This document shows positions 22,629-58,483 of a DNA stretch of 64,000 nucleotides, in pieces. This DNA comes from Candidatus Avelusimicrobium intestinale. Lineage in GTDB: Bacteria; Elusimicrobiota; Elusimicrobia; Elusimicrobiales; Elusimicrobiaceae. The notes under the pieces were generated by a model. It saw nothing but the letters and a program-made list of their open reading frames with translations. It was not told the origin of the DNA and searched no databases. A program made the translations under genes and the position numbers. The DNA lies in the NCBI GenBank assembly GCA_902765225.1, contig CACWYV010000001.1:62001-126000 (forward strand), written 5' to 3'. Positions within the stretch are counted from its first letter, which is position 1. Every line of letters begins with the position of its first letter.

Positions 22629-22661
22629 ATGAGCAGTTCCTTTTTAAGCTACGGAGACTAT

Positions 22662-23549
22662 ATGTTGAACGGAATTTTTACCGCATTAGCAACCCCTTTC
22701 ACAACCGACGGAGCTATTGATTTCCCCGCGTTGGAACGCTTGCTGCAGGCCCAGTTGGCCGCAGGCGTGGACGGCATAGTATTACTCGGCACGACGGCAG
22801 AAACGCCCACTTTATCCGCCGATGAAAAAAAACAAATTTTGGATTTTTGTATCCCGCGGCTGACCGGACGATGTAAAATCGTAATCGGCACGGGGGCAAA
22901 TGCTACGGCAGCCGCCGTAGAAAATACCCGCGCAGTATTGCCGTATAAACCGGAAGCGGTGTTAGTCGTCACTCCGTATTACAACAAACCCAATCCGGCC
23001 GGATTAATTGCCCATTATAAGGCCGTTGCCGCCGTGGGACTGCCGATTATTTTGTATCATATCCCCGGGCGAACGGGGCTAAAATTGCCGGACCATGTAT
23101 TGGCCGATTTGCTCAACAAAGTTCCGCAAATTGTGGGCATCAAAGAGTCAGATTATGACCCGGCCCACGTCATGGAAACAGCCGTACGTTATAACGGCAA
23201 AAAGGCCTACTTATGCGGCAATGATGACTTGTTCCCGCAATATTTGGCCATCAACGCGGCCGGTATCATCAGTGCGGCCGCCAATGTGTTTGCCCCGGCC
23301 TTTGTACAAATTTACAAATTATTCAAACAAGGACATGCTGACCAAGCGTTTGATTTGTTTGCTGAGTTATACCCGCATATCAAAGCGTGCTATGCGGAAA
23401 CAAACCCCACGTGTATTAAATATATGTTGTCTAAACGCGGGTTCGGCACGGCAACCGTGCGGCTGCCGTTGGGGAACATTTCTCCCGAACACCAGCAGCA
23501 AATAGATCAATTGTTGCCGACGGCGCCGGCATCGTGGATGATTCGGTAA
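22662..23549 (+). CDS. dapA: 4-hydroxy-tetrahydrodipicolinate synthase
   Basis: Condenses pyruvate with aspartate semialdehyde, the branch point to DAP and lysine. Seen: TIM-barrel signature LGTTAETPTLS, the Schiff-base lysine in PQIVGIKES, and the catalytic Tyr in VVTPYYNKP. The start at 22662 has cggagac upstream, giving 295 residues. First gene of dapA-asd-dapB-Mur ligase. Confidence 0.95.
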   Translation: MLNGIFTALATPFTTDGAIDFPALERLLQAQLAAGVDGIVLLGTTAETPTLSADEKKQILDFCIPRLTGRCKIVIGTGANATAAAVENTRAVLPYKPEAVLVVTPYYNKPNPAGLIAHYKAVAAVGLPIILYHIPGRTGLKLPDHVLADLLNKVPQIVGIKESDYDPAHVMETAVRYNGKKAYLCGNDDLFPQYLAINAAGIISAAANVFAPAFVQIYKLFKQGHADQAFDLFAELYPHIKACYAETNPTCIKYMLSKRGFGTATVRLPLGNISPEHQQQIDQLLPTAPASWMIR

Positions 23550-27977: not shown

Positions 27978-28517
27978 CTAGTTCTTGGGCACAAAGGTCA
28001 TGCTCATCCGGTTGCCGAGCTGTTGCAGCCCACCGTCCACCGTGGCTAACGGCTCCAACCGTTTGGCGGTATCGTTTAAAATTTGGATACCTAATTCCTT
28101 GTGCTGATTCTCGCGCCCGCGGAAGACCACCACAAAGCGAACTTGGTTTTTCTTGCGTAAAAATTCCTCAATCTGGTTGAGTTTGACTTCCAAATCGTGC
28201 GGTGCAATGCGCGATTTGATACGCAATTCCTTCAACGTCACCTTCGCTTGTTTCTTTTTGGCCTCGGCGGCTTTTTTACCCTGTTCGTAAACGTACTTGT
28301 TGTAATCCAGTATTTTACAGACAGGAGGTTGGGCGTTGGGAGAAATCTCCACTAAGTCCAACTCTTGTTCTTTAGCCATCGCAACGGCTTCGCGCGTCGG
28401 AAAGATACCTAACATGGTACCGTCCGAATTAATCACGCGCACTTCGGCCGCGCGGATGTTATGGTTACGGCAATACAAGTCTTGCTTGTAAACTCTTCTG
28501 TTATCAAATCTGGCCAT
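27978..28517 (-). CDS. infC: Translation initiation factor IF-3
   Basis: Binds the 30S subunit and checks start-codon pairing. 179 residues. Seen: N-domain NIRAAEVRVINSDGTMLGIF and PTREAVAMAKEQELDLVEIS, PPVCKILDY, and the C-domain with FRGRENQH. It starts with ATG and not the rare ATT/ATC used for autoregulation in E. coli. There is no clear Shine-Dalgarno; the short 5' UTR carries two inverted repeats. Confidence 0.95.
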   Translation of the reverse strand: MARFDNRRVYKQDLYCRNHNIRAAEVRVINSDGTMLGIFPTREAVAMAKEQELDLVEISPNAQPPVCKILDYNKYVYEQGKKAAEAKKKQAKVTLKELRIKSRIAPHDLEVKLNQIEEFLRKKNQVRFVVVFRGRENQHKELGIQILNDTAKRLEPLATVDGGLQQLGNRMSMTFVPKN

Positions 28518-28559: not shown

Positions 28560-28589
28560 ATTATACCAAGTTCCCCAAAATAGTGTCAA
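28560..28589 (-). promoter_or_regulatory. Near-consensus promoter of infC-rpmI-rplT
   Basis: The minus strand carries TTGACA (28584-28589), an 18-base spacer and TATAAT (28560-28565), with TG before the -10. The -35 lies over the stop codon of the upstream lipoprotein gene. It is the best sigma-70 match in the window. Confidence 0.8.
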
Positions 28590-29056
28590 TGGGCTATAGA
28601 GGTCGCCGGTACATCCATGGGCAGGGGTTGGGTAAGCACCGGGTGTGCCTGGTAACGCAGCGTACCATCCTCAAACAATTCCCATAATTCTTGTTGCCCT
28701 GCCTGGGCCGGATGACGCACCAACCGCCAAGCGGACTGCGGAGATTTCCATTCATTCCCGGACCGGTTTAATAGTGGCGAATGGGTGGGTGTTGGTAAAA
28801 AAATCTCAACCTGATTGTAATCATTACTAAATACACCCGAAGCCCACAAGTTCGGGGATCCGTCCGTTACTTCGCTTAATTGTAGTCCTGTTTCCCAGGT
28901 CCGGATACATTCCTTGCGTACAGAACTCCACACATACCCCGCTGATGCAATACATCCGTGCGCATCTTTGTCGTTTCCAACTAGGTGCGACGAAGATTCC
29001 GGTGTACAGGCGGACAAAAAAACCCACGCGGTAATGCATAATAAAACGTATCTCAT
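28586..29056 (-). CDS. Lipoprotein with SAGYVWS-C motif, function unknown
   Basis: A 156-residue lipoprotein; lipobox FLSAC puts lipidated Cys at 17. The segment GCIASAGYVWSSVRKECIRT, with its two cysteines and aromatic residues, resembles a motif I associate with uncharacterised bacterial lipoproteins. The rest is unrecognised. The ATG has no Shine-Dalgarno; TACAAT ends 6 bases before it, so the mRNA is probably leaderless. Possible location is the inner leaflet of the outer membrane. Confidence 0.65.
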   Translation of the reverse strand: MRYVLLCITAWVFLSACTPESSSHLVGNDKDAHGCIASAGYVWSSVRKECIRTWETGLQLSEVTDGSPNLWASGVFSNDYNQVEIFLPTPTHSPLLNRSGNEWKSPQSAWRLVRHPAQAGQQELWELFEDGTLRYQAHPVLTQPLPMDVPATSIAH

Positions 29057-29062
29057 ATTTTT

Positions 29063-29068
29063 ATTGTA
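29063..29068 (-). promoter_or_regulatory. -10 box placed for a leaderless lipoprotein mRNA
   Basis: The minus strand reads TACAAT, then 6 bases (aaaaat), then the ATG at 29056. Confidence 0.5.
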
Positions 29069-30441: not shown

Positions 30442-32427
30442 ATGCAACCCAAAGAAGAAATTGAACAGTTACGTAAACTGATTCGTTTCCACAGTGATTT
30501 GTATTACAACCAAGATAATCCCGTTCTGTCGGATACCCAATACGACGAACTTTATCACCGCTTGCAAACGTTGGAAAAACAATACCCGCAATTTATCACG
30601 CCGGATTCCCCCACACAACGCGTAGGAGGGGTTGCCTCGCGCGCATTCCGGCCAGTCACACACGCTGTACCCATGATGTCTTTGGACAATTCCTACTCGG
30701 CGGATGATATCCGCGAGTGGCACGAACGCACCGTTAAATTATTGGGCCGGGACTCGTTTGAGATGGTGGTGGAAGGGAAAATTGACGGGGTATCGTGCTC
30801 GCTGACGTACCAAGACGGCAAATTGATTCAAGCCGCCAGCCGCGGCGACGGCAAAACAGGCGAAGATATTACCGCCAACGTACTCACCATTCAAAATATC
30901 CCCCACCAACTGCCCCAAGCCCCGGGCGGTGTATTGGAAATCCGCGGCGAAGTGTATTTGGATAAAAAAGATTTAGAGATGTTAAATGCCGAACAAGAAA
31001 GTGCCGGGGGCAATATTTTTGCCAACACCCGCAATGCCGCAGCGGGTTCCTTGCGGCAAAAAGATGCCGCGCTAACAGCCAAACGGCCGCTGAAATTTTT
31101 TGCCCACTCGTTTGGATTGGGCCATATTACCGCCGAAAGTTTCAGCGCGTTTATTAACTGGTGCCGCACGTGGGGATTTGACGTATGTCCCGTACGGACG
31201 CAAGTTACCCAAATTGCCGATGTTATCCGTTTTTACAATGAATTTGCGGACAAACGGGCCGATTTACCGTTTGACGTGGATGGGTTGGTGGTCAAGGTAA
31301 ACCAGTTTCAAGACCAACAACTTTTAGGCGCAACGGCCCGTAGTCCGCGGTGGGCCATTGCCTTTAAATATCCGGCTCCGCAAGCCACCACCACCGTTAA
31401 AAATATTGTATTTTCCGTCGGCAGAACCGGCATCATTACTCCCGTGGCCGAGCTCGCCCCTGTACCTTGCGCGGGTGTAATTATTTCCAATGCCACGCTG
31501 CACAATTTTGATGAAATTCAGCGTTTGGGGGTACGCGTAGGCGATAGTGTGATTATTGAGCGCGCCGGAGAAGTAATACCGAAAGTCATCAAGGTAGCGG
31601 AACACCGCGGCACACAGGAAGTGTTACCGCCCGCGAATTGTCCGTCGTGCGGAGCCCCCGTTTACAAAGAACAAGATGAAGTGGGTTACTATTGCATCAA
31701 CCCGGCTTGCCCGGCCCAATTGCAAGCGCGGCTAATACACTTTGCTTCGCGTGACGCTATGGACATTGACGGGTTGGGAGACGTAGTTGTGCGGGAATTG
31801 GTGAAACTCAATTTTCTGGCTGAATTTGCCGACATCTACCAACTATCTTTTTTACATCTGTTACAACTTCCCAACTTCAAAGATAAAAAAGCGCAGAATT
31901 TACTGGACGCGATTGAAGCGAGTAAGAAACGCCCGCTGGCCAAATTGTTGTTTGCCTTGGGAATTGCCTTCGTGGGTGAAAAAACAGCCGAAGTATTGGC
32001 GGATCATTTCCACACGCTGGATAATTTAAAAAATGCTTCCTTGGAAACGCTGCAGCACATCCCCGACGTAGGTGAAAAAGTTTCCCAGAGTATTTATGAT
32101 TTCTTCCATGACCCAAAGGCGGTAGAACAAATTGAAAAATTGCGGCTGGCCGGGCTAAACTTCACCCAGCCCGAGCGGGAAAAATCGGGTAATATATTAG
32201 AAGGTAAAACCTTGGTATTTACGGGCGAACTGAAAACAATGACCCGCACCCAGGCCGAACAACTGGCCAAACAACACGGCGGAAAGGCCGCAAGCAGCGT
32301 ATCCAAAAAAACAGCCTATGTGGTAGCAGGTGAAGCCGCAGGAAGCAAACTCAAAAAAGCACAGGAATTGGGGATAACCGTTTTGACCGAAGAAGAATTT
32401 TTACAACTGATTCAAAAAACAAATTAA
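30442..32427 (+). CDS. ligA: NAD-dependent DNA ligase
   Basis: Seals nicks using NAD. 661 residues with all domains: Ia, adenylation domain with active-site Lys113 in VEGKIDGVS, OB fold, zinc finger (CPSCGAPVYKEQDEVGYYC then C), helix-hairpin-helix, and a C-terminal BRCT domain (LEGKTLVFTGELKTMTR). Its stop overlaps that of the convergent pilin by 4 bases. Confidence 0.97.
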   Translation: MQPKEEIEQLRKLIRFHSDLYYNQDNPVLSDTQYDELYHRLQTLEKQYPQFITPDSPTQRVGGVASRAFRPVTHAVPMMSLDNSYSADDIREWHERTVKLLGRDSFEMVVEGKIDGVSCSLTYQDGKLIQAASRGDGKTGEDITANVLTIQNIPHQLPQAPGGVLEIRGEVYLDKKDLEMLNAEQESAGGNIFANTRNAAAGSLRQKDAALTAKRPLKFFAHSFGLGHITAESFSAFINWCRTWGFDVCPVRTQVTQIADVIRFYNEFADKRADLPFDVDGLVVKVNQFQDQQLLGATARSPRWAIAFKYPAPQATTTVKNIVFSVGRTGIITPVAELAPVPCAGVIISNATLHNFDEIQRLGVRVGDSVIIERAGEVIPKVIKVAEHRGTQEVLPPANCPSCGAPVYKEQDEVGYYCINPACPAQLQARLIHFASRDAMDIDGLGDVVVRELVKLNFLAEFADIYQLSFLHLLQLPNFKDKKAQNLLDAIEASKKRPLAKLLFALGIAFVGEKTAEVLADHFHTLDNLKNASLETLQHIPDVGEKVSQSIYDFFHDPKAVEQIEKLRLAGLNFTQPEREKSGNILEGKTLVFTGELKTMTRTQAEQLAKQHGGKAASSVSKKTAYVVAGEAAGSKLKKAQELGITVLTEEEFLQLIQKTN

Positions 32428-32921
32428 GGGATTTTATAAACTTGCCATCCGTCGTATAATCCTCCTTTTTTCCCACCAAAACCCTCGCACACCGCCATGG
32501 CTACAGAGTCTGTCTTTTTGGCCCGACATTCCCCGTTGCCGGAAGCAACACTCCGTACATACTGTATGCGGGACTTAAAGGTACAGGAAGTAACAAATGC
32601 CGTTTTGGCCTCATTTTGCCACAAACCACATTTACGTTGGTTGTCAATTTGAATAGCGGTAGAACTAATGATTCTGCCGGGGAGACTCAAATCCAAGGCT
32701 TCCAAGTTGGTAACATAGGCTCCATTGGCTAATTGATACGTTGTTTCTGCATCCGCCAAGGCCTTTGCCATTACTTGTAATTTACTAAATTCGGCCTTCA
32801 AAACAGCTCTTTGGTATCCCGGCACGGCGATAGAGGCCAAAATACCTACAATGAGCACCACAACCAGAATTTCAACAAGGGTGAATCCTTTTTTCTTTTT
32901 ATAATAGTTGTTATTTCCCAT
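32424..32921 (-). CDS. Type IV pilin-like protein (pilin D)
   Basis: A 165-residue prepilin-like protein. The leader MGNNNYYKKKKG is basic and ends in Gly; the helix is FTLVEILVVVLIVGILASIA with Glu +5. The C-terminal part has Cys pairs (QRKCGLW, FVTSCTF, GNGECRAKK, MAVCEGFGG). TATACT ends 6 bases before the ATG and no Shine-Dalgarno is seen, so a leaderless mRNA is likely. It is more divergent than the other three pilins, and its function is open between pilin and pseudopilin. Confidence 0.83.
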   Translation of the reverse strand: MGNNNYYKKKKGFTLVEILVVVLIVGILASIAVPGYQRAVLKAEFSKLQVMAKALADAETTYQLANGAYVTNLEALDLSLPGRIISSTAIQIDNQRKCGLWQNEAKTAFVTSCTFKSRIQYVRSVASGNGECRAKKTDSVAMAVCEGFGGKKGGLYDGWQVYKIP

Positions 32922-32927
32922 ACATAA

Positions 32928-32933
32928 AGTATA
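32928..32933 (-). promoter_or_regulatory. -10 box placed for a leaderless pilin D mRNA
   Basis: The minus strand reads TATACT, 6 bases (ttatgt), then the ATG at 32921. TTGACG at 32949-32954 could be the -35 but the spacer is only 15 bases. Confidence 0.5.
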
Positions 32934-36248: not shown

Positions 36249-36509
36249 CTACTCCTCATTTTCTACATCAAGATCAATTAAAAACGGTTCGGGGAAAAAA
36301 TGGCGGTACGGCTTCAAGTATGTAATAGCGTATTCCATTCCGTACGACGTAATCAAGTGCATGCTGACGGGTGCTACGGAACTCTGCCCCGCTACCAATG
36401 TGCCCACCGTCAATACCAGCAATATAAACAGCACTTTTATAAAAGAAAAGAAGGCCTGAAAAACCAGTTTGATCGGGATACGAATTATCTCCAGTAAAGA
36501 GGACATCAT
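36249..36509 (-). CDS. Small single-pass membrane protein, unknown
   Basis: 86 residues: an amphipathic N-terminus with basic residues, one hydrophobic stretch (FIKVLFILLVLTVGTLVA), and a polar C-terminus ending in acidic residues (LIDLDVENEE). I do not recognise it. It overlaps the CsgG-like gene by 4 bases and precedes serS by 8, so it is a real member of the operon. Confidence 0.55.
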   Translation of the reverse strand: MMSSLLEIIRIPIKLVFQAFFSFIKVLFILLVLTVGTLVAGQSSVAPVSMHLITSYGMEYAITYLKPYRHFFPEPFLIDLDVENEE

Positions 36510-37186
36510 TTGCTCCTTTGCCGTTTGGCTAATTCTTTCTCAAAACTTTTGACCAACTGCTTGGCAATATGGTCAGACGTTTCCAACGCGCTGGAAGAAG
36601 CCGCATCCGCGGACCCGATCCATACAATTTCCGCCGTTTCCACATCCACCAATTTGGCAATCAATCCTACCCGACCGCTAATGGTGTATTCCGTAGGTAA
36701 CACATCGGCCGATTGGGAAACCCGCGTACCGACCTTCTTCAGATACCCGGCGTAAGTGCCGTCCGGACGGCGCATCACTTCTTGCCGATACACCGGCCGC
36801 GCTTCCGTACGGCGGGAAGCCGTAAGGGCCAACTCCGTACGGGCCGGTATATAATCGCTCACTTCCCCGACCAGTAACACATCAACCCCCAAAATCCGGC
36901 CGATTTCCCGCGTGGTCTGTGGCGATAAATACCCCGACACCGCAATATGGTGCTCTGCCAAAATGCTTTCCAACTGGGCCCGTTCTATTACGGTAAATCC
37001 ACGTTGGATAAGGTATTTGGCAAATAAGTTCTCCACTCCCTGCAGCCCCTGTTGCTGGTTGTCAAACGCCATAATACCTATACGATGCATTTGGTCAAAA
37101 TCATACGTCTGGCTGATAACGGTTTTAGGGGTGCAACCTACCAGCCCCCAGCAAACCAATGCCAGCCCGGCCCATACTTTTCTCAT
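36506..37186 (-). CDS. CsgG-like lipoprotein
   Basis: A 226-residue lipoprotein: lipobox GLVGC, then HRIGIMAFDNQQQG, RGFTVIERAQLESILAEH and LGVDVLLVGEVSDY, the alternation seen in CsgG/HfaB proteins and relatives that anchor surface polymers. It has the GFTVIER core but not the transmembrane beta-hairpins clearly, so pore formation is not claimed. No Shine-Dalgarno; TATAAT ends 6 bases before the ATG, predicting a leaderless mRNA. First gene of the operon that includes serS. Confidence 0.72.
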   Translation of the reverse strand: MRKVWAGLALVCWGLVGCTPKTVISQTYDFDQMHRIGIMAFDNQQQGLQGVENLFAKYLIQRGFTVIERAQLESILAEHHIAVSGYLSPQTTREIGRILGVDVLLVGEVSDYIPARTELALTASRRTEARPVYRQEVMRRPDGTYAGYLKKVGTRVSQSADVLPTEYTISGRVGLIAKLVDVETAEIVWIGSADAASSSALETSDHIAKQLVKSFEKELAKRQRSK

Positions 37187-37192
37187 AAATGT

Positions 37193-37198
37193 ATTATA
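37193..37198 (-). promoter_or_regulatory. -10 box placed for a leaderless CsgG-like mRNA
   Basis: The minus strand reads TATAAT, 6 bases (acattt), then ATG at 37186. It sits 25 bases from the opposing kdsC -10. Confidence 0.6.
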
Positions 37199-37223
37199 TA
37201 ATTTTTAACAAATCATAAAAAAG

Positions 37224-37229
37224 TATAAT
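37224..37229 (+). promoter_or_regulatory. -10 box placed for a leaderless kdsC mRNA
   Basis: TATAAT, 6 bases (agtagt), then the ATG at 37236; no Shine-Dalgarno is possible in such a transcript. Confidence 0.6.
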
Positions 37230-37235
37230 AGTAGT

Positions 37236-37835
37236 ATGAAGCAGACGGTTTCTCCTTCTTTTATCCAAAAAGCAAAACATATTAAAGTATTGCTGACGGA
37301 CGTAGACGGCGTAATGACGGACGGAACGCTCAGTTTTTTTACGGATAGCCAAGGTCACACGCATGAGATAAAAAATTTTGAATCGTTGGACGGTATGGGA
37401 CTCATGTATTTGGCCGCTTGCGGTATTAAAACGGGGATTATCTCCCGCGGGACCAGTCCCACGTTGGAGTATTGGGCCAAAATCTTGGGTATGGACTTTT
37501 TGTTTTATAATACTTCCGTCAAAGCCCACGCGTTGGACTATTTACAACAACACCATGGTATCCGGGCCGAAGAAACGGCTTTTATCGGAGATGATTTAAT
37601 TGACCTGGGTGTCTTAGACCGGGTGGGTTTACCGTTAGCCGTAGCCAACAGTGTAGCGGAAATACGCGCCCTGGCTGCTTATACTTCCCCCCGATGTGGT
37701 GGGCACGCGGCGGTGCGAGACATTGCCGAACAGATTTTAAAAGCACGCGGCGAATGGGAGCGTATCGTTACCCAAAACCGCCAAGGCACCTTCCGGCCGC
37801 CGCAACACGCGTTATGTGTTGTAAAAGGGCTCTAA
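37236..37835 (+). CDS. kdsC: 3-deoxy-manno-octulosonate-8-phosphate phosphatase
   Basis: A HAD-family phosphatase that releases KDO for LPS. Seen: motif I LLTDVDGVMTDG near residues 19-30, IISRGTS as motif II, and FIGDDLIDLGVL as motif IV. 199 residues, typical of KdsC tetramers with no cap domain. The C-terminus has a glycine/His-rich RCGGHAAVRD segment known from the family. Divergent from the CsgG-like operon. Confidence 0.9.
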   Translation: MKQTVSPSFIQKAKHIKVLLTDVDGVMTDGTLSFFTDSQGHTHEIKNFESLDGMGLMYLAACGIKTGIISRGTSPTLEYWAKILGMDFLFYNTSVKAHALDYLQQHHGIRAEETAFIGDDLIDLGVLDRVGLPLAVANSVAEIRALAAYTSPRCGGHAAVRDIAEQILKARGEWERIVTQNRQGTFRPPQHALCVVKGL

Positions 37836-40974: not shown

Positions 40975-42282
40975 TTAATTATGTAAAACTTCAACCACAG
41001 AACTTTGCCCGTCCGACAACACTTCCGCCATCAAAACGGCCCGGTCTGTACACGTTGTATCATACACAAATCCGTCTAACGTCACGGTGTCCGTCCGGTT
41101 GAGGTGTCCTTTGTCCAAATCCAAAAAGTGCACTTTGGCACTTTCATATTGGCCGAACATCCCCGACAACAACCCAAATTTAGCCGTATTTTCCACTACT
41201 GCCGCCTGCCAACGTCCTTGGGAAGGAACTACCTGCAAGGAAGGCGGCAACTTGATAATCTCTTGTTTATATTTTACACGATTTGGCGTTCCTACGGTCA
41301 ATTCTTTATAAGCAATCGCTTTTCCTTTTGCCGGCTTCCATTGTACGCGGCCGGAAGAGGCCACGTAAATGGACGCCGGTTCTTGAGATTCTTGCGGCCA
41401 AAAGTTTAATCCGGCTATCCACACACGCGGGTCAGACCGACGCGCTTTATCCATGACAAATTCGCCGTTTTGGTAAACCAGCGGATGCGCTTTCCCCGGT
41501 TGTACACCGCTGACAAAAGGACGTTGGACCCAGAGGGTTTTGTTCGGCCCACAACCGATTTCTTTTACAAAATACGGCAAGGTGGCCACCGTGTTCCACT
41601 GACCGTTTTCATACGCTAAAACCCAGGTTGAGATACGGGCGGAACGCTCGTCATATACAGTAGCGAAAATTTCTGCGGTAACGTTACCGCGCGCCGCTAC
41701 GGCAGAAAGCGTGAGCGGTTTTTTAGCAGCAGGCAATTGGTACAAAAGCGTTTGCACTAATTTATCTTTTTCGCGCTTCCAAACGGTAATTTGCCCTTTG
41801 GCAGAAAGCGTAATCCACTCATCTGCGCCGGGTGCGGAGATATCCGCGGCAGATACGCTGATAACTTCTTGCTCAACCGGCTCATAAATTACTTTCGTAT
41901 GCGCGGCAGCGGCTTCTTTGGGGCCAGATACAACGGACGATTGCGCCGAAGTTTCCGCGTTTGTTTCCCAAACGGCTTCTTGCCCCACCTTGACCTCAGC
42001 CGTCTGAGAAAGGGTTCCCACCGCATAAAGAGGTTGCACTTCGCTAATCGTTCCGGGTTGCGAGTACGTATAAATCAGCCCCAAATCTTTTCCCGTAGTA
42101 GGATTGGTTAGCGGTTCGGCCGCCAAAATAACCTTGAAACGGTCCCCCGGGCGCACCGCCGTTTTGACGGAAGAGGTGTCCAGATACACTTTTCCGTCTT
42201 GCACACGCACCACCGTCATTTGTCCGCAAACGGGAAAAGCAGCGCCCAGTAAAAAAAACAAAAGGAATATTCTCATTTTCAT
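40975..42282 (-). CDS. Secreted protein with possible FlgT-like start and beta-rich body, unknown
   Basis: A 435-residue exported protein: signal peptide (MRIFLLFFLLGAAFPVCG), then a domain of about 80 residues (VVRVQDGKVYLDTSSV, VRPGDRFKVIL) resembling small beta-barrel domains that sit at the C-terminus of FlgT-type proteins. The rest is strand-rich (repeated W-x-x-x and D-x-x-G patterns) and could be a beta-propeller; this is inference. Predicted leaderless: TACAAT ends 6 bases before the ATG. It is followed 12 bases on by thyX. Confidence 0.6.
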   Translation of the reverse strand: MKMRIFLLFFLLGAAFPVCGQMTVVRVQDGKVYLDTSSVKTAVRPGDRFKVILAAEPLTNPTTGKDLGLIYTYSQPGTISEVQPLYAVGTLSQTAEVKVGQEAVWETNAETSAQSSVVSGPKEAAAAHTKVIYEPVEQEVISVSAADISAPGADEWITLSAKGQITVWKREKDKLVQTLLYQLPAAKKPLTLSAVAARGNVTAEIFATVYDERSARISTWVLAYENGQWNTVATLPYFVKEIGCGPNKTLWVQRPFVSGVQPGKAHPLVYQNGEFVMDKARRSDPRVWIAGLNFWPQESQEPASIYVASSGRVQWKPAKGKAIAYKELTVGTPNRVKYKQEIIKLPPSLQVVPSQGRWQAAVVENTAKFGLLSGMFGQYESAKVHFLDLDKGHLNRTDTVTLDGFVYDTTCTDRAVLMAEVLSDGQSSVVEVLHN

Positions 42283-42288
42283 ATAATA

Positions 42289-42294
42289 ATTGTA
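42289..42294 (-). promoter_or_regulatory. -10 box placed for a leaderless mRNA
   Basis: The minus strand reads TACAAT, 6 bases (tattat), then the ATG at 42282 of the secreted protein. Divergent from mazG, 24 bases away. Confidence 0.5.
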
Positions 42295-42318
42295 TATTAT
42301 TTTTAGAAAGAGGTTACT

Positions 42319-56404: not shown

Positions 56405-56413
56405 TGCTAGAAT
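56405..56413 (+). promoter_or_regulatory. Extended -10 placed for a leaderless folD mRNA
   Basis: TGCTAGAAT with TAGAAT at 56408-56413, then 7 bases (gtaatat) and the ATG at 56421. No Shine-Dalgarno. Confidence 0.55.
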
Positions 56414-56420
56414 GTAATAT

Positions 56421-57281
56421 ATGATTTTAGAAGGACGTACCCTAGCCCAACAAATCCGTCAATCCCTGCCTGACAGGGCCGAACATGTGCGCCAAAAATT
56501 AGGCCGCCCGATTTGTTTGTGTGCGCTTGGCTCCACCGACGATTACGCCGCGCGCCTCTACTTGCAAAAAGAAGTAGAAGCCGCCAAATCCCTGGGGTTG
56601 GAAACACATATTTTTGATTTAGACCAAAATACCCCGCCGGAAGGTTTTCTGCGTGCGATAGAAACGCTGGCGGAAACCTCGCACATAGATGCCGTGCTGA
56701 TTCCGCGTCCGTTACCGGCGCAGTTAGCCGACTCCTCCTTCGCCGATTCTTTAAACCCCCACCAAGATGTGGACGGAATGTCCGTAAAAAATCTGGGTCG
56801 TTTGTTTTTGTGTAAGACTTGGCAACAGGTAACTTCCCGGGTCGGTTTTGTTCCTTCCACAGCAACGGCTGTTATGCGGTTGTTGGATTTTCACCGTATT
56901 GAGTTAGCCGGTAAGCACGCCGTTGTAATCGGGCGTTCGGCTACAGTGGGCCGCCCGTTGGCGCATTTACTCTCTTGCAAAAATGCTACGGTAACCTTGT
57001 GCCATTCTTATACCGATTTGCCACGCGCCATCAGCGGGGCGGATATCATCTGTTCTGCGGCAGGAACCCCCGGGTTGTTAAAAACCGAGTGGATTAAAAA
57101 AGGAGCCGTGGTCATTGATATTTCCACAAATTGGAAAAACAACACGCTTTGCGGTGATGCAGATGCCCAAGCGTTGACGGATGCCGGTATCTCTTATTCC
57201 CCCGTTCCGGGCGGAGTAGGACCGGTAACACTTGCAGTACTGCTAGAAAACATTATATTATCTGGTGAACGGAAAATTTAA
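56421..57281 (+). CDS. folD: Methylene-THF dehydrogenase/cyclohydrolase FolD, divergent active site
   Basis: Converts methylene-THF to formyl-THF in two steps. Seen: KDVDG-like HQDVDGMSVKNLGRL, VVIGRSATVGRPLAHLL (NADP site) and PVPGGVGPVTLAVLLENI. Divergent places: the usual Q-L-P-L-P is P-R-P-L-P, and the catalytic Y-x-x-x-K is shifted (LYLQKE). The fold is certain; full dual activity is not. Likely leaderless. The lipoprotein gene follows 9 bases on. Confidence 0.83.
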   Translation: MILEGRTLAQQIRQSLPDRAEHVRQKLGRPICLCALGSTDDYAARLYLQKEVEAAKSLGLETHIFDLDQNTPPEGFLRAIETLAETSHIDAVLIPRPLPAQLADSSFADSLNPHQDVDGMSVKNLGRLFLCKTWQQVTSRVGFVPSTATAVMRLLDFHRIELAGKHAVVIGRSATVGRPLAHLLSCKNATVTLCHSYTDLPRAISGADIICSAAGTPGLLKTEWIKKGAVVIDISTNWKNNTLCGDADAQALTDAGISYSPVPGGVGPVTLAVLLENIILSGERKI

Positions 57282-57755: not shown

Positions 57756-58448
57756 CTATACAAACAAATCAATACAATCGGTAAAAATACCGTCTGCGCC
57801 GGTTTGTTCCAGTTGGCCGGCAACGGCTACCGCATTAACGGTATAAACGTAGATTTTAAGTCCGTTTTCGTGGCAAACTTGGGCTATTTGCGGGGTAAAG
57901 CGCGTGTAATTGATGTGTACGCTTTCAGCCCGCAAAGCGTGCGCTTGGCCCACATCAAACTGCCGCGTGAGTAACCCGATACGCGCTTGGGGCCATAGGG
58001 CGCGCAGCCGCGCCAACGTATCATAATCAAAACTGGAAAACAACACATGCGGCAGTACAGCCGGATAGTCGGCTAACGTATCTAACAAGATTTTTTCTAT
58101 ACCCGGGTAACGGTTGTCATCATTTTTAAGTTCTATGTTGAGCAGTTGTAAATCCGGCGCGACCACAGGTAACACATCTTGCAGGAGGGGTACTACCGCT
58201 AGAGTTGACGTAAACGGATTGACCAGCGGATAGCGCCGCAAATCCGCACCGGATATTTCTGCCAAGCGGATAGTTTGCCCGTGAGCAGATACCAAATCAT
58301 AATCGTGATGAACAGCCAATTGGCCGTCGGCCAACAAATGTACATCCAATTCAAAATACCGCGCGCCTTGTTCGTGCGCCACTTGGAACGCAGGAACGGT
58401 ATTTTGTACGCGGTAACGGTTTGCTCCGCGGTGTGAAAAATAAATCAT
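57756..58448 (-). CDS. glpQ: Glycerophosphodiester phosphodiesterase
   Basis: A cytoplasmic GDPD-fold enzyme of 230 residues that cleaves glycerophosphodiesters. Seen: SHRGANRYRVQNTVPAF with the catalytic His, ELDVHLLADGQLAVHHD with metal Glu/Asp and the second His, and LLNIELKNDD. No signal peptide, so nearer UgpQ than periplasmic GlpQ. ATG 58448 is chosen; it is preceded by TATACT at 6 bases and no Shine-Dalgarno. Confidence 0.88.
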   Translation of the reverse strand: MIYFSHRGANRYRVQNTVPAFQVAHEQGARYFELDVHLLADGQLAVHHDYDLVSAHGQTIRLAEISGADLRRYPLVNPFTSTLAVVPLLQDVLPVVAPDLQLLNIELKNDDNRYPGIEKILLDTLADYPAVLPHVLFSSFDYDTLARLRALWPQARIGLLTRQFDVGQAHALRAESVHINYTRFTPQIAQVCHENGLKIYVYTVNAVAVAGQLEQTGADGIFTDCIDLFV

Positions 58449-58454
58449 ACAAGT

Positions 58455-58483
58455 AGTATAGAAAAATCGCGCGCTCCCGGCAA
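58455..58483 (-). promoter_or_regulatory. Promoter placed for a leaderless phosphodiesterase mRNA
   Basis: The minus strand carries TTGCCG (58478-58483), a 17-base spacer, TATACT (58455-58460), 6 bases, then the ATG. The -35 supports the call. Confidence 0.62.

What the first reader, a model, noticed from the sequence alone, without database searches (positions are those of the whole stretch)
37184..37238. Divergent pair of leaderless mRNAs with fixed -10 to ATG spacing, part of a wider set
Both kdsC (37236, plus) and the CsgG-like gene (37186, minus) have TATAAT followed by exactly 6 bases and then ATG, with no Shine-Dalgarno. The same layout is seen at 29056 (TACAAT), 32921 (TATACT), 42282 (TACAAT), 58448 (TATACT) and, with 7 bases, at 56421 (TAGAAT). 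The spacing puts transcription start on the A of the ATG. Seven cases in one window, against other genes that keep good ribosome sites, suggest two translation modes in this genome.
Basis: partly seen in the sequence, partly recalled or inferred. Interest (0 to 1): 0.75.

Follow-up and report, generated by a model that had tools for sequence, protein, structure and literature searches.

The report
Leaderless genes in a gut Elusimicrobium relative
About one gene in fourteen in this gut bacterium (phylum Elusimicrobiota) has its promoter placed so that the messenger RNA should begin exactly at the start codon, without the usual ribosome-binding leader; this way of starting translation is known in other bacteria, and here it is supported by conservation across dozens of species in a lineage where I found no earlier report.

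Summary
All seven quoted sites exist as written, and an eighth (6158, +) was missed. Six TAYAMT hexamers ending exactly 6 nt before an ATG are expected about 0.3 times in a window. In 644 kb of the genome (550 called genes), 38 ATG starts carry the motif. Controls: 1/3180 internal ATGs, 1/563 out-of-frame ATGs, 1/1436 GTG/TTG candidates. None of the 38 has a Shine-Dalgarno (SD) site, against 35% of other candidate ATGs. SD-led starts have -10-like boxes mostly 12-50 nt upstream and none within 8 nt. In 46 congeneric loci the CsgG-side spacing is 6 in 45 and 7 in one, while the spacer letters change. kdsC keeps 6-9 in 40 of 46, but one clade has 16-18 nt, and all five of those loci carry an AGGA site. 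folD behaves similarly. The signal extends through the class and fades in other classes of Elusimicrobiota. Best reading: TA-led leaderless mRNAs (about 7% of genes) beside ordinary SD initiation, in the genus that includes Candidatus Avelusimicrobium. It is a known kind in a lineage for which I found no report. No transcription start was mapped, so leaderlessness is inferred, strongly.

The parts
37236..37835 (+). kdsC-family phosphatase gene, leaderless start at ATG 37236
   Evidence: HAD/KdsC family (TIGR01670 107.2 bits, over cut-off); only one in-frame start candidate between the upstream stop and the conserved core; spacing conserved in genus
37224..37229 (+). -10 box TATAAT of kdsC, 6 nt before ATG
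   Evidence: genus comparison
36506..37186 (-). CsgG-domain lipoprotein gene, leaderless start at 37186
   Evidence: PF03783 CsgG E=3.5e-11; spacing 6 in 45 of 46 congeneric loci, 7 in one
37193..37198 (-). -10 box TATAAT of the CsgG-like gene
28586..29056 (-). small predicted lipoprotein gene with leaderless start; -10 TACAAT at 29063-29068
   Evidence: PWM 20.3; no Pfam family
32424..32921 (-). type IV pilin-like gene (N-methylation motif) with leaderless start; -10 TATACT at 32928-32933
40975..42282 (-). predicted exported protein of unknown family; leaderless or near-leaderless start; hexamer TACAAT at 6 nt (42289-42294) or extended -10 TATACA at 8 nt
   Evidence: most of 24 congeneric homologues conserve the TATAC..TTATTATATG block
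57756..58448 (-). glycerophosphodiester phosphodiesterase gene with leaderless start; -10 TATACT at 58455-58460
   Evidence: PF03009; same layout in the L085 homologue
56421..57281 (+). folD gene, spacing 7 here; extended -10 TTTGCTAGAAT ending at 56413
   Evidence: NCBIfam FolD models; conserved TAnnnT box with spacing 6-9, mostly with TGn, in 26 of 27 genus loci and spacing 6 in f2-family homologues L255, L256

Best explanation
These are leaderless genes. A sigma-70-type -10 box (TAYAAT, preceded by an A/T-rich tract and in a third of cases by the TG of an extended -10) lies exactly 6 nt before the ATG. RNA polymerase therefore starts on the A of ATG, or within 0-3 nt of it for the spacing-7-to-9 variants. 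The ribosome should take these mRNAs by recognising the 5'-terminal AUG with initiator tRNA, without SD pairing. The same genome uses ordinary SD initiation for most genes. Shown from sequence: motif, spacing, absence of SD, ATG-only starts, position at the head of transcription units, conservation, exchange with SD starts. Inferred: the transcription start itself and the AUG-first ribosome entry.
For: Exact-6 peak: 21 of 654 candidate ATGs against about 1.8 at other spacings; separate contig C4: 6 of 256 against 0 of 904 internal ATGs. PWM > 8: 38 ATG starts in 550 genes, 1/3180 internal ATGs, 1/563 out-of-frame, 1/1436 GTG/TTG; SD in 0/38 against 305/870. TA-led genes head transcription units: 53% have a divergent upstream neighbour against 20% for SD genes, 3% have a co-directional gap under 12 nt against 36%. 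SD starts have -10-like boxes mostly from 12 nt outward, none within 8 nt. Genus conservation: CsgG spacing 6 in 45/46; kdsC 6-9 in 40 of 46, and all five loci with 16-18 nt carry AGGA; folD likewise. Clade spread: hits over reversed control 8.2x in genus, 3.1x in other genera of the family, 2.6x in f2, 4.2x in other families of the class, 1.1x in other classes. 16S keeps CCTCC.
Against: No RNA 5' end was measured. No -35 enrichment was found (mean best match 2.97 against 2.92 shuffled), so promoter strength is unknown. Some kdsC and folD orthologues have spacing 7-9, which may leave a 1-3 nt leader. 36% of genes have neither signal under my simple start calling, so the two classes do not account for every start.
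Confidence: 0.92

Rival explanations
1. The hexamers are chance AT-rich matches near starts, because starts and intergenic DNA are AT-rich.
For: The loose TANNNT-N6-ATG pattern is not above its reversed control genome-wide.
Against: Sharp peak at exactly 6 nt and not at neighbouring spacings; 28 of 33 strict hits open an ORF of 60 aa or more (85%) against 37-38% of all TATG; spacing conserved in 45/46 loci while spacer letters vary.
Confidence: 0.01
2. The -10 boxes are real, but transcription starts a little further downstream, so the first ATG is lost and translation starts at a later codon with an SD.
For: Start-site distance from the -10 box can vary by a few bases (general knowledge); at window 22629 a TACAAT abuts an ATG and a later ATG with SD (22662) is the likelier start.
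Against: kdsC has no other in-frame start before its conserved core; N-terminal homology of FolD begins at residue 1 in the genus; T at -1 in 36/38 marks the A of ATG as the likely +1.
Confidence: 0.03
3. The genes have very short leaders (1-5 nt) rather than none, and rely on general unstructured, AU-rich, S1-aided initiation.
For: kdsC spacing 8-9 in 14 of 46 loci and folD spacing 7-9 in several.
Against: Spacing 6 is the sharp mode; GTG/TTG starts lack the motif (1/1436), as expected for AUG-dependent 5'-end recognition.
Confidence: 0.04

Closest known systems
TA-led leaderless genes of bacteria (Zheng et al. 2011, PMC3160421)
   Same: TA-like -10 signal about 10 bp before the translation start, no SD, coexisting with SD-led genes in the same genome.
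   Different: [quoted passage not shown] the string 'elusimicrobi' does not occur in that paper's text.
-10 motif adjacent to ORFs in Deinococcus-Thermus (PMC12340547)
   Same: TANNNT mostly 6-7 bp before the ORF, acts as a -10 box for leaderless mRNA, with a specific spacing requirement; adding a -35 raises transcription.
   Different: There about 30% of ORFs; here about 7%. There tested by experiment; here only by sequence and conservation.

Membership tests
TA-led leaderless genes | -10-like hexamer at a fixed distance (about 10 bp, 6-7 nt gap) before the start codon | tested here: met
   Peak at exactly 6 nt; 38 starts over PWM 8
TA-led leaderless genes | No Shine-Dalgarno at these starts in a genome that otherwise uses it | tested here: met
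   0/38 against 305/870; 16S 3' end keeps CCTCC
TA-led leaderless genes | Genes head transcription units | tested here: met
   53% divergent neighbour, 3% close co-directional neighbour
TA-led leaderless genes | AUG start codon | tested here: met
   1/1436 GTG/TTG candidates carry the motif
TA-led leaderless genes | RNA 5' end at the start codon | not testable with these tools
   No transcript data at hand
TA-led leaderless genes | Translation of the leaderless mRNA | not testable with these tools
   Needs a reporter or ribosome profiling

The most novel reading that the evidence does not exclude
In the class Elusimicrobia leaderless promoters form an old, selected set (for example kdsC/CsgG, folD) whose translation is co-regulated apart from SD-led genes, for instance by the balance of initiation factors, and genes cross between the two modes as their neighbourhoods change.
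Probability: 0.12. Interest if true: 0.7.

Novelty: new member of a known kind. Interest (0 to 1): 0.45.

Why it matters
It adds a lineage of mostly uncultured gut bacteria to those with a sizeable leaderless gene set, and gives a clean comparative case: dozens of congeneric species in which the same gene is leaderless in most and SD-led in a few, so the gain and loss of a leader can be followed. In practice, gene finders that assume SD sites may misplace starts in these genomes.

Tried and rejected
The raw TANNNT-N6-ATG count in the genome shows nothing and was replaced by start-centred tests. Chance AT-richness was rejected by spacing, internal, out-of-frame and reversed-pattern controls. 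A -35 box was sought and not found above shuffles. Loss of anti-SD or of IF3 as a cause was rejected: 16S keeps CCTCC and infC is present; an S1-like protein is present but below the rpsA cut-off, as in 12 of the 14 control genomes, so it says little. Searches for papers on leaderless genes in Elusimicrobia found none on the subject; the library is partial.

Full report
What is there. The seven sites are in the sequence as described, and none has an SD site. The pair at 37186/37236 is divergent: a CsgG-domain lipoprotein gene on the minus strand (PF03783) and a kdsC-family phosphatase gene on the plus strand (TIGR01670 over its cut-off), with both -10 boxes in the 49-base gap. An eighth case, 6158 +, has TATGAT + 6 + ATG.

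The organism. The window is part of a 1.41-Mb genome in 7 contigs. The named relatives are Elusimicrobiaceae gut MAGs.

Is it more than chance? Over all DNA, the loose TANNNT-N6-ATG pattern is not enriched (549 hits against 579 for the reversed pattern). At gene starts it is. In 464 kb, TAYAMT ends exactly 6 nt before 21 of 654 candidate ATGs; other spacings average 1.8, and internal ATGs give 1 of 2263. A separate contig gave 6 of 256 against 0 of 904. In 644 kb, 33 hits to TAYAMT-N5-T-ATG open 28 ORFs of at least 60 aa (85%), while 37-38% of all TATG do; the same hexamer at 14 nt gives 4 hits and 1 ORF. A weight matrix built from 28 strict starts scores above 8 at 38 ATG starts among 550 genes, at 1 of 3180 internal ATGs, 1 of 563 out-of-frame ATGs and 1 of 1436 GTG/TTG candidates. 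The matrix was trained on most of the 38, so the count is an estimate, but the control sets were not used in training. For the window alone, 6 strict cases against 0.28 expected gives P about 5e-7.

Anatomy. The aligned strict starts show TAYAMT at -12 to -7, an A/T-rich tract at -20 to -15, A at -6 (67%), G at -2 (62%) and T at -1 (95%). In the set of 38, T at -1 occurs in 36, G at -2 in 19 and a TGn extended -10 in 13; a -35 box is not detectable. In the usual sigma-70 geometry a hexamer at -12 to -7 puts +1 on the A of ATG, and T at -1 with A at +1 is a common start-site preference (general knowledge).

Two modes. Using a simple start assignment, 312 genes have an SD, 38 the adjacent -10 and 200 neither. 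The first two exclude each other: SD in 0 of 38 against 305 of 870. SD starts have -10-like boxes mostly from 12 nt outward and none within 8 nt, while candidate starts without SD show 30 boxes at exactly 6 nt. The TA-led genes head transcription units: 53% have a divergent upstream neighbour against 20% of SD genes, and 3% follow a gene within 12 nt against 36%. The 16S gene keeps CCTCC and infC is present, so the parts for SD initiation are there.

Conservation. In 46 congeneric loci the CsgG-like gene has spacing 6 in 45 and 7 in one, never with an SD, although the six spacer letters differ. For kdsC, together show spacing 6 in 24 loci, 7 in two, 8 in three, 9 in eleven, one locus (L053) without a clear box, and 16-18 nt in L074-L078; those five, and only those, carry AGGA at SD distance. 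For folD, 26 of 27 genus loci have a TAnnnT box close to the ATG (6-9 nt), mostly with TGn in front; L242 has lost it, abuts the upstream gene and has GAGGAG instead; two homologues in the sister family f2 (L255, L256) also have spacing 6. For the gene at 42282, an extended block is conserved, so the choice of hexamer (6 or 8 nt) is open.

Spread. In 246 genomes of the phylum, TAYAMT-N5-TATG exceeds its reversed control 8.2-fold in the genus, 3.1-fold in other genera of the family, 2.6-fold in family f2, 4.2-fold in other families of the class, and 1.1-fold in other classes. Start-centred checks on 220-400 kb samples agree in direction for the family and order but are weak outside the genus.

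Which genes. They include kdsC, a CsgG-like lipoprotein, folD, a GDPD, hinT, pheS, nadK and mutS, and a radical SAM protein, a chromate transporter, MacB/FtsX, GH57, an oligopeptide-type ABC ATPase, a lipid A acyltransferase and a glycosyltransferase. No single pathway stands out.

Verdict. The sequence evidence supports leaderless transcripts with AUG-first initiation beside SD initiation. The kind is known (PMC3160421; PMC12340547, where the motif lies 6-7 bp before ORFs). I found no report for Elusimicrobiota, within an incomplete library. The step not shown is the RNA 5' end.

Noticed in passing
window 22629-22665 (+): TACAAT directly abuts the first ATG (22629), so that ATG cannot be in a transcript from this promoter; the start is more likely ATG 22662, which has GGAG at SD distance.
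   Followed up: partly
L074-L078, about 60 bases before kdsC: One clade has an SD-led kdsC start (TATAAT, 16-18 nt, AGGA) while the divergent CsgG-like gene stays leaderless.
   Followed up: yes
L242 against L237, L241, L243, upstream of folD: Close relatives differ by a short stretch holding the extended -10; without it folD abuts the upstream gene and has GAGGAG.
   Followed up: partly
window 42282-42310 (-) and L203-L226: The block aaaaTGnTATACnATTATTAT-ATGAAAA is conserved including the spacer letters, more than a fixed distance alone would need; an extra role (operator or 5'-end RNA signal) is possible.
   Followed up: no
kdsC upstream, L060, L063-L067, L069-L072, L098: A group of species has spacing 9 instead of 6, a shift of exactly three bases, with 8 nt in three others; whether the start moves or a 3-nt leader results is unknown.
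   Followed up: no
window 27978-28517 (-): infC (IF3), a factor held to disfavour leaderless mRNAs (general knowledge), lies about 69 bases downstream of the leaderless lipoprotein gene at 29056.
   Followed up: no
G000:C1:405449-406003: A second KdsC-like phosphatase gene, 32% identical to the first, exists in the genome.
   Followed up: no
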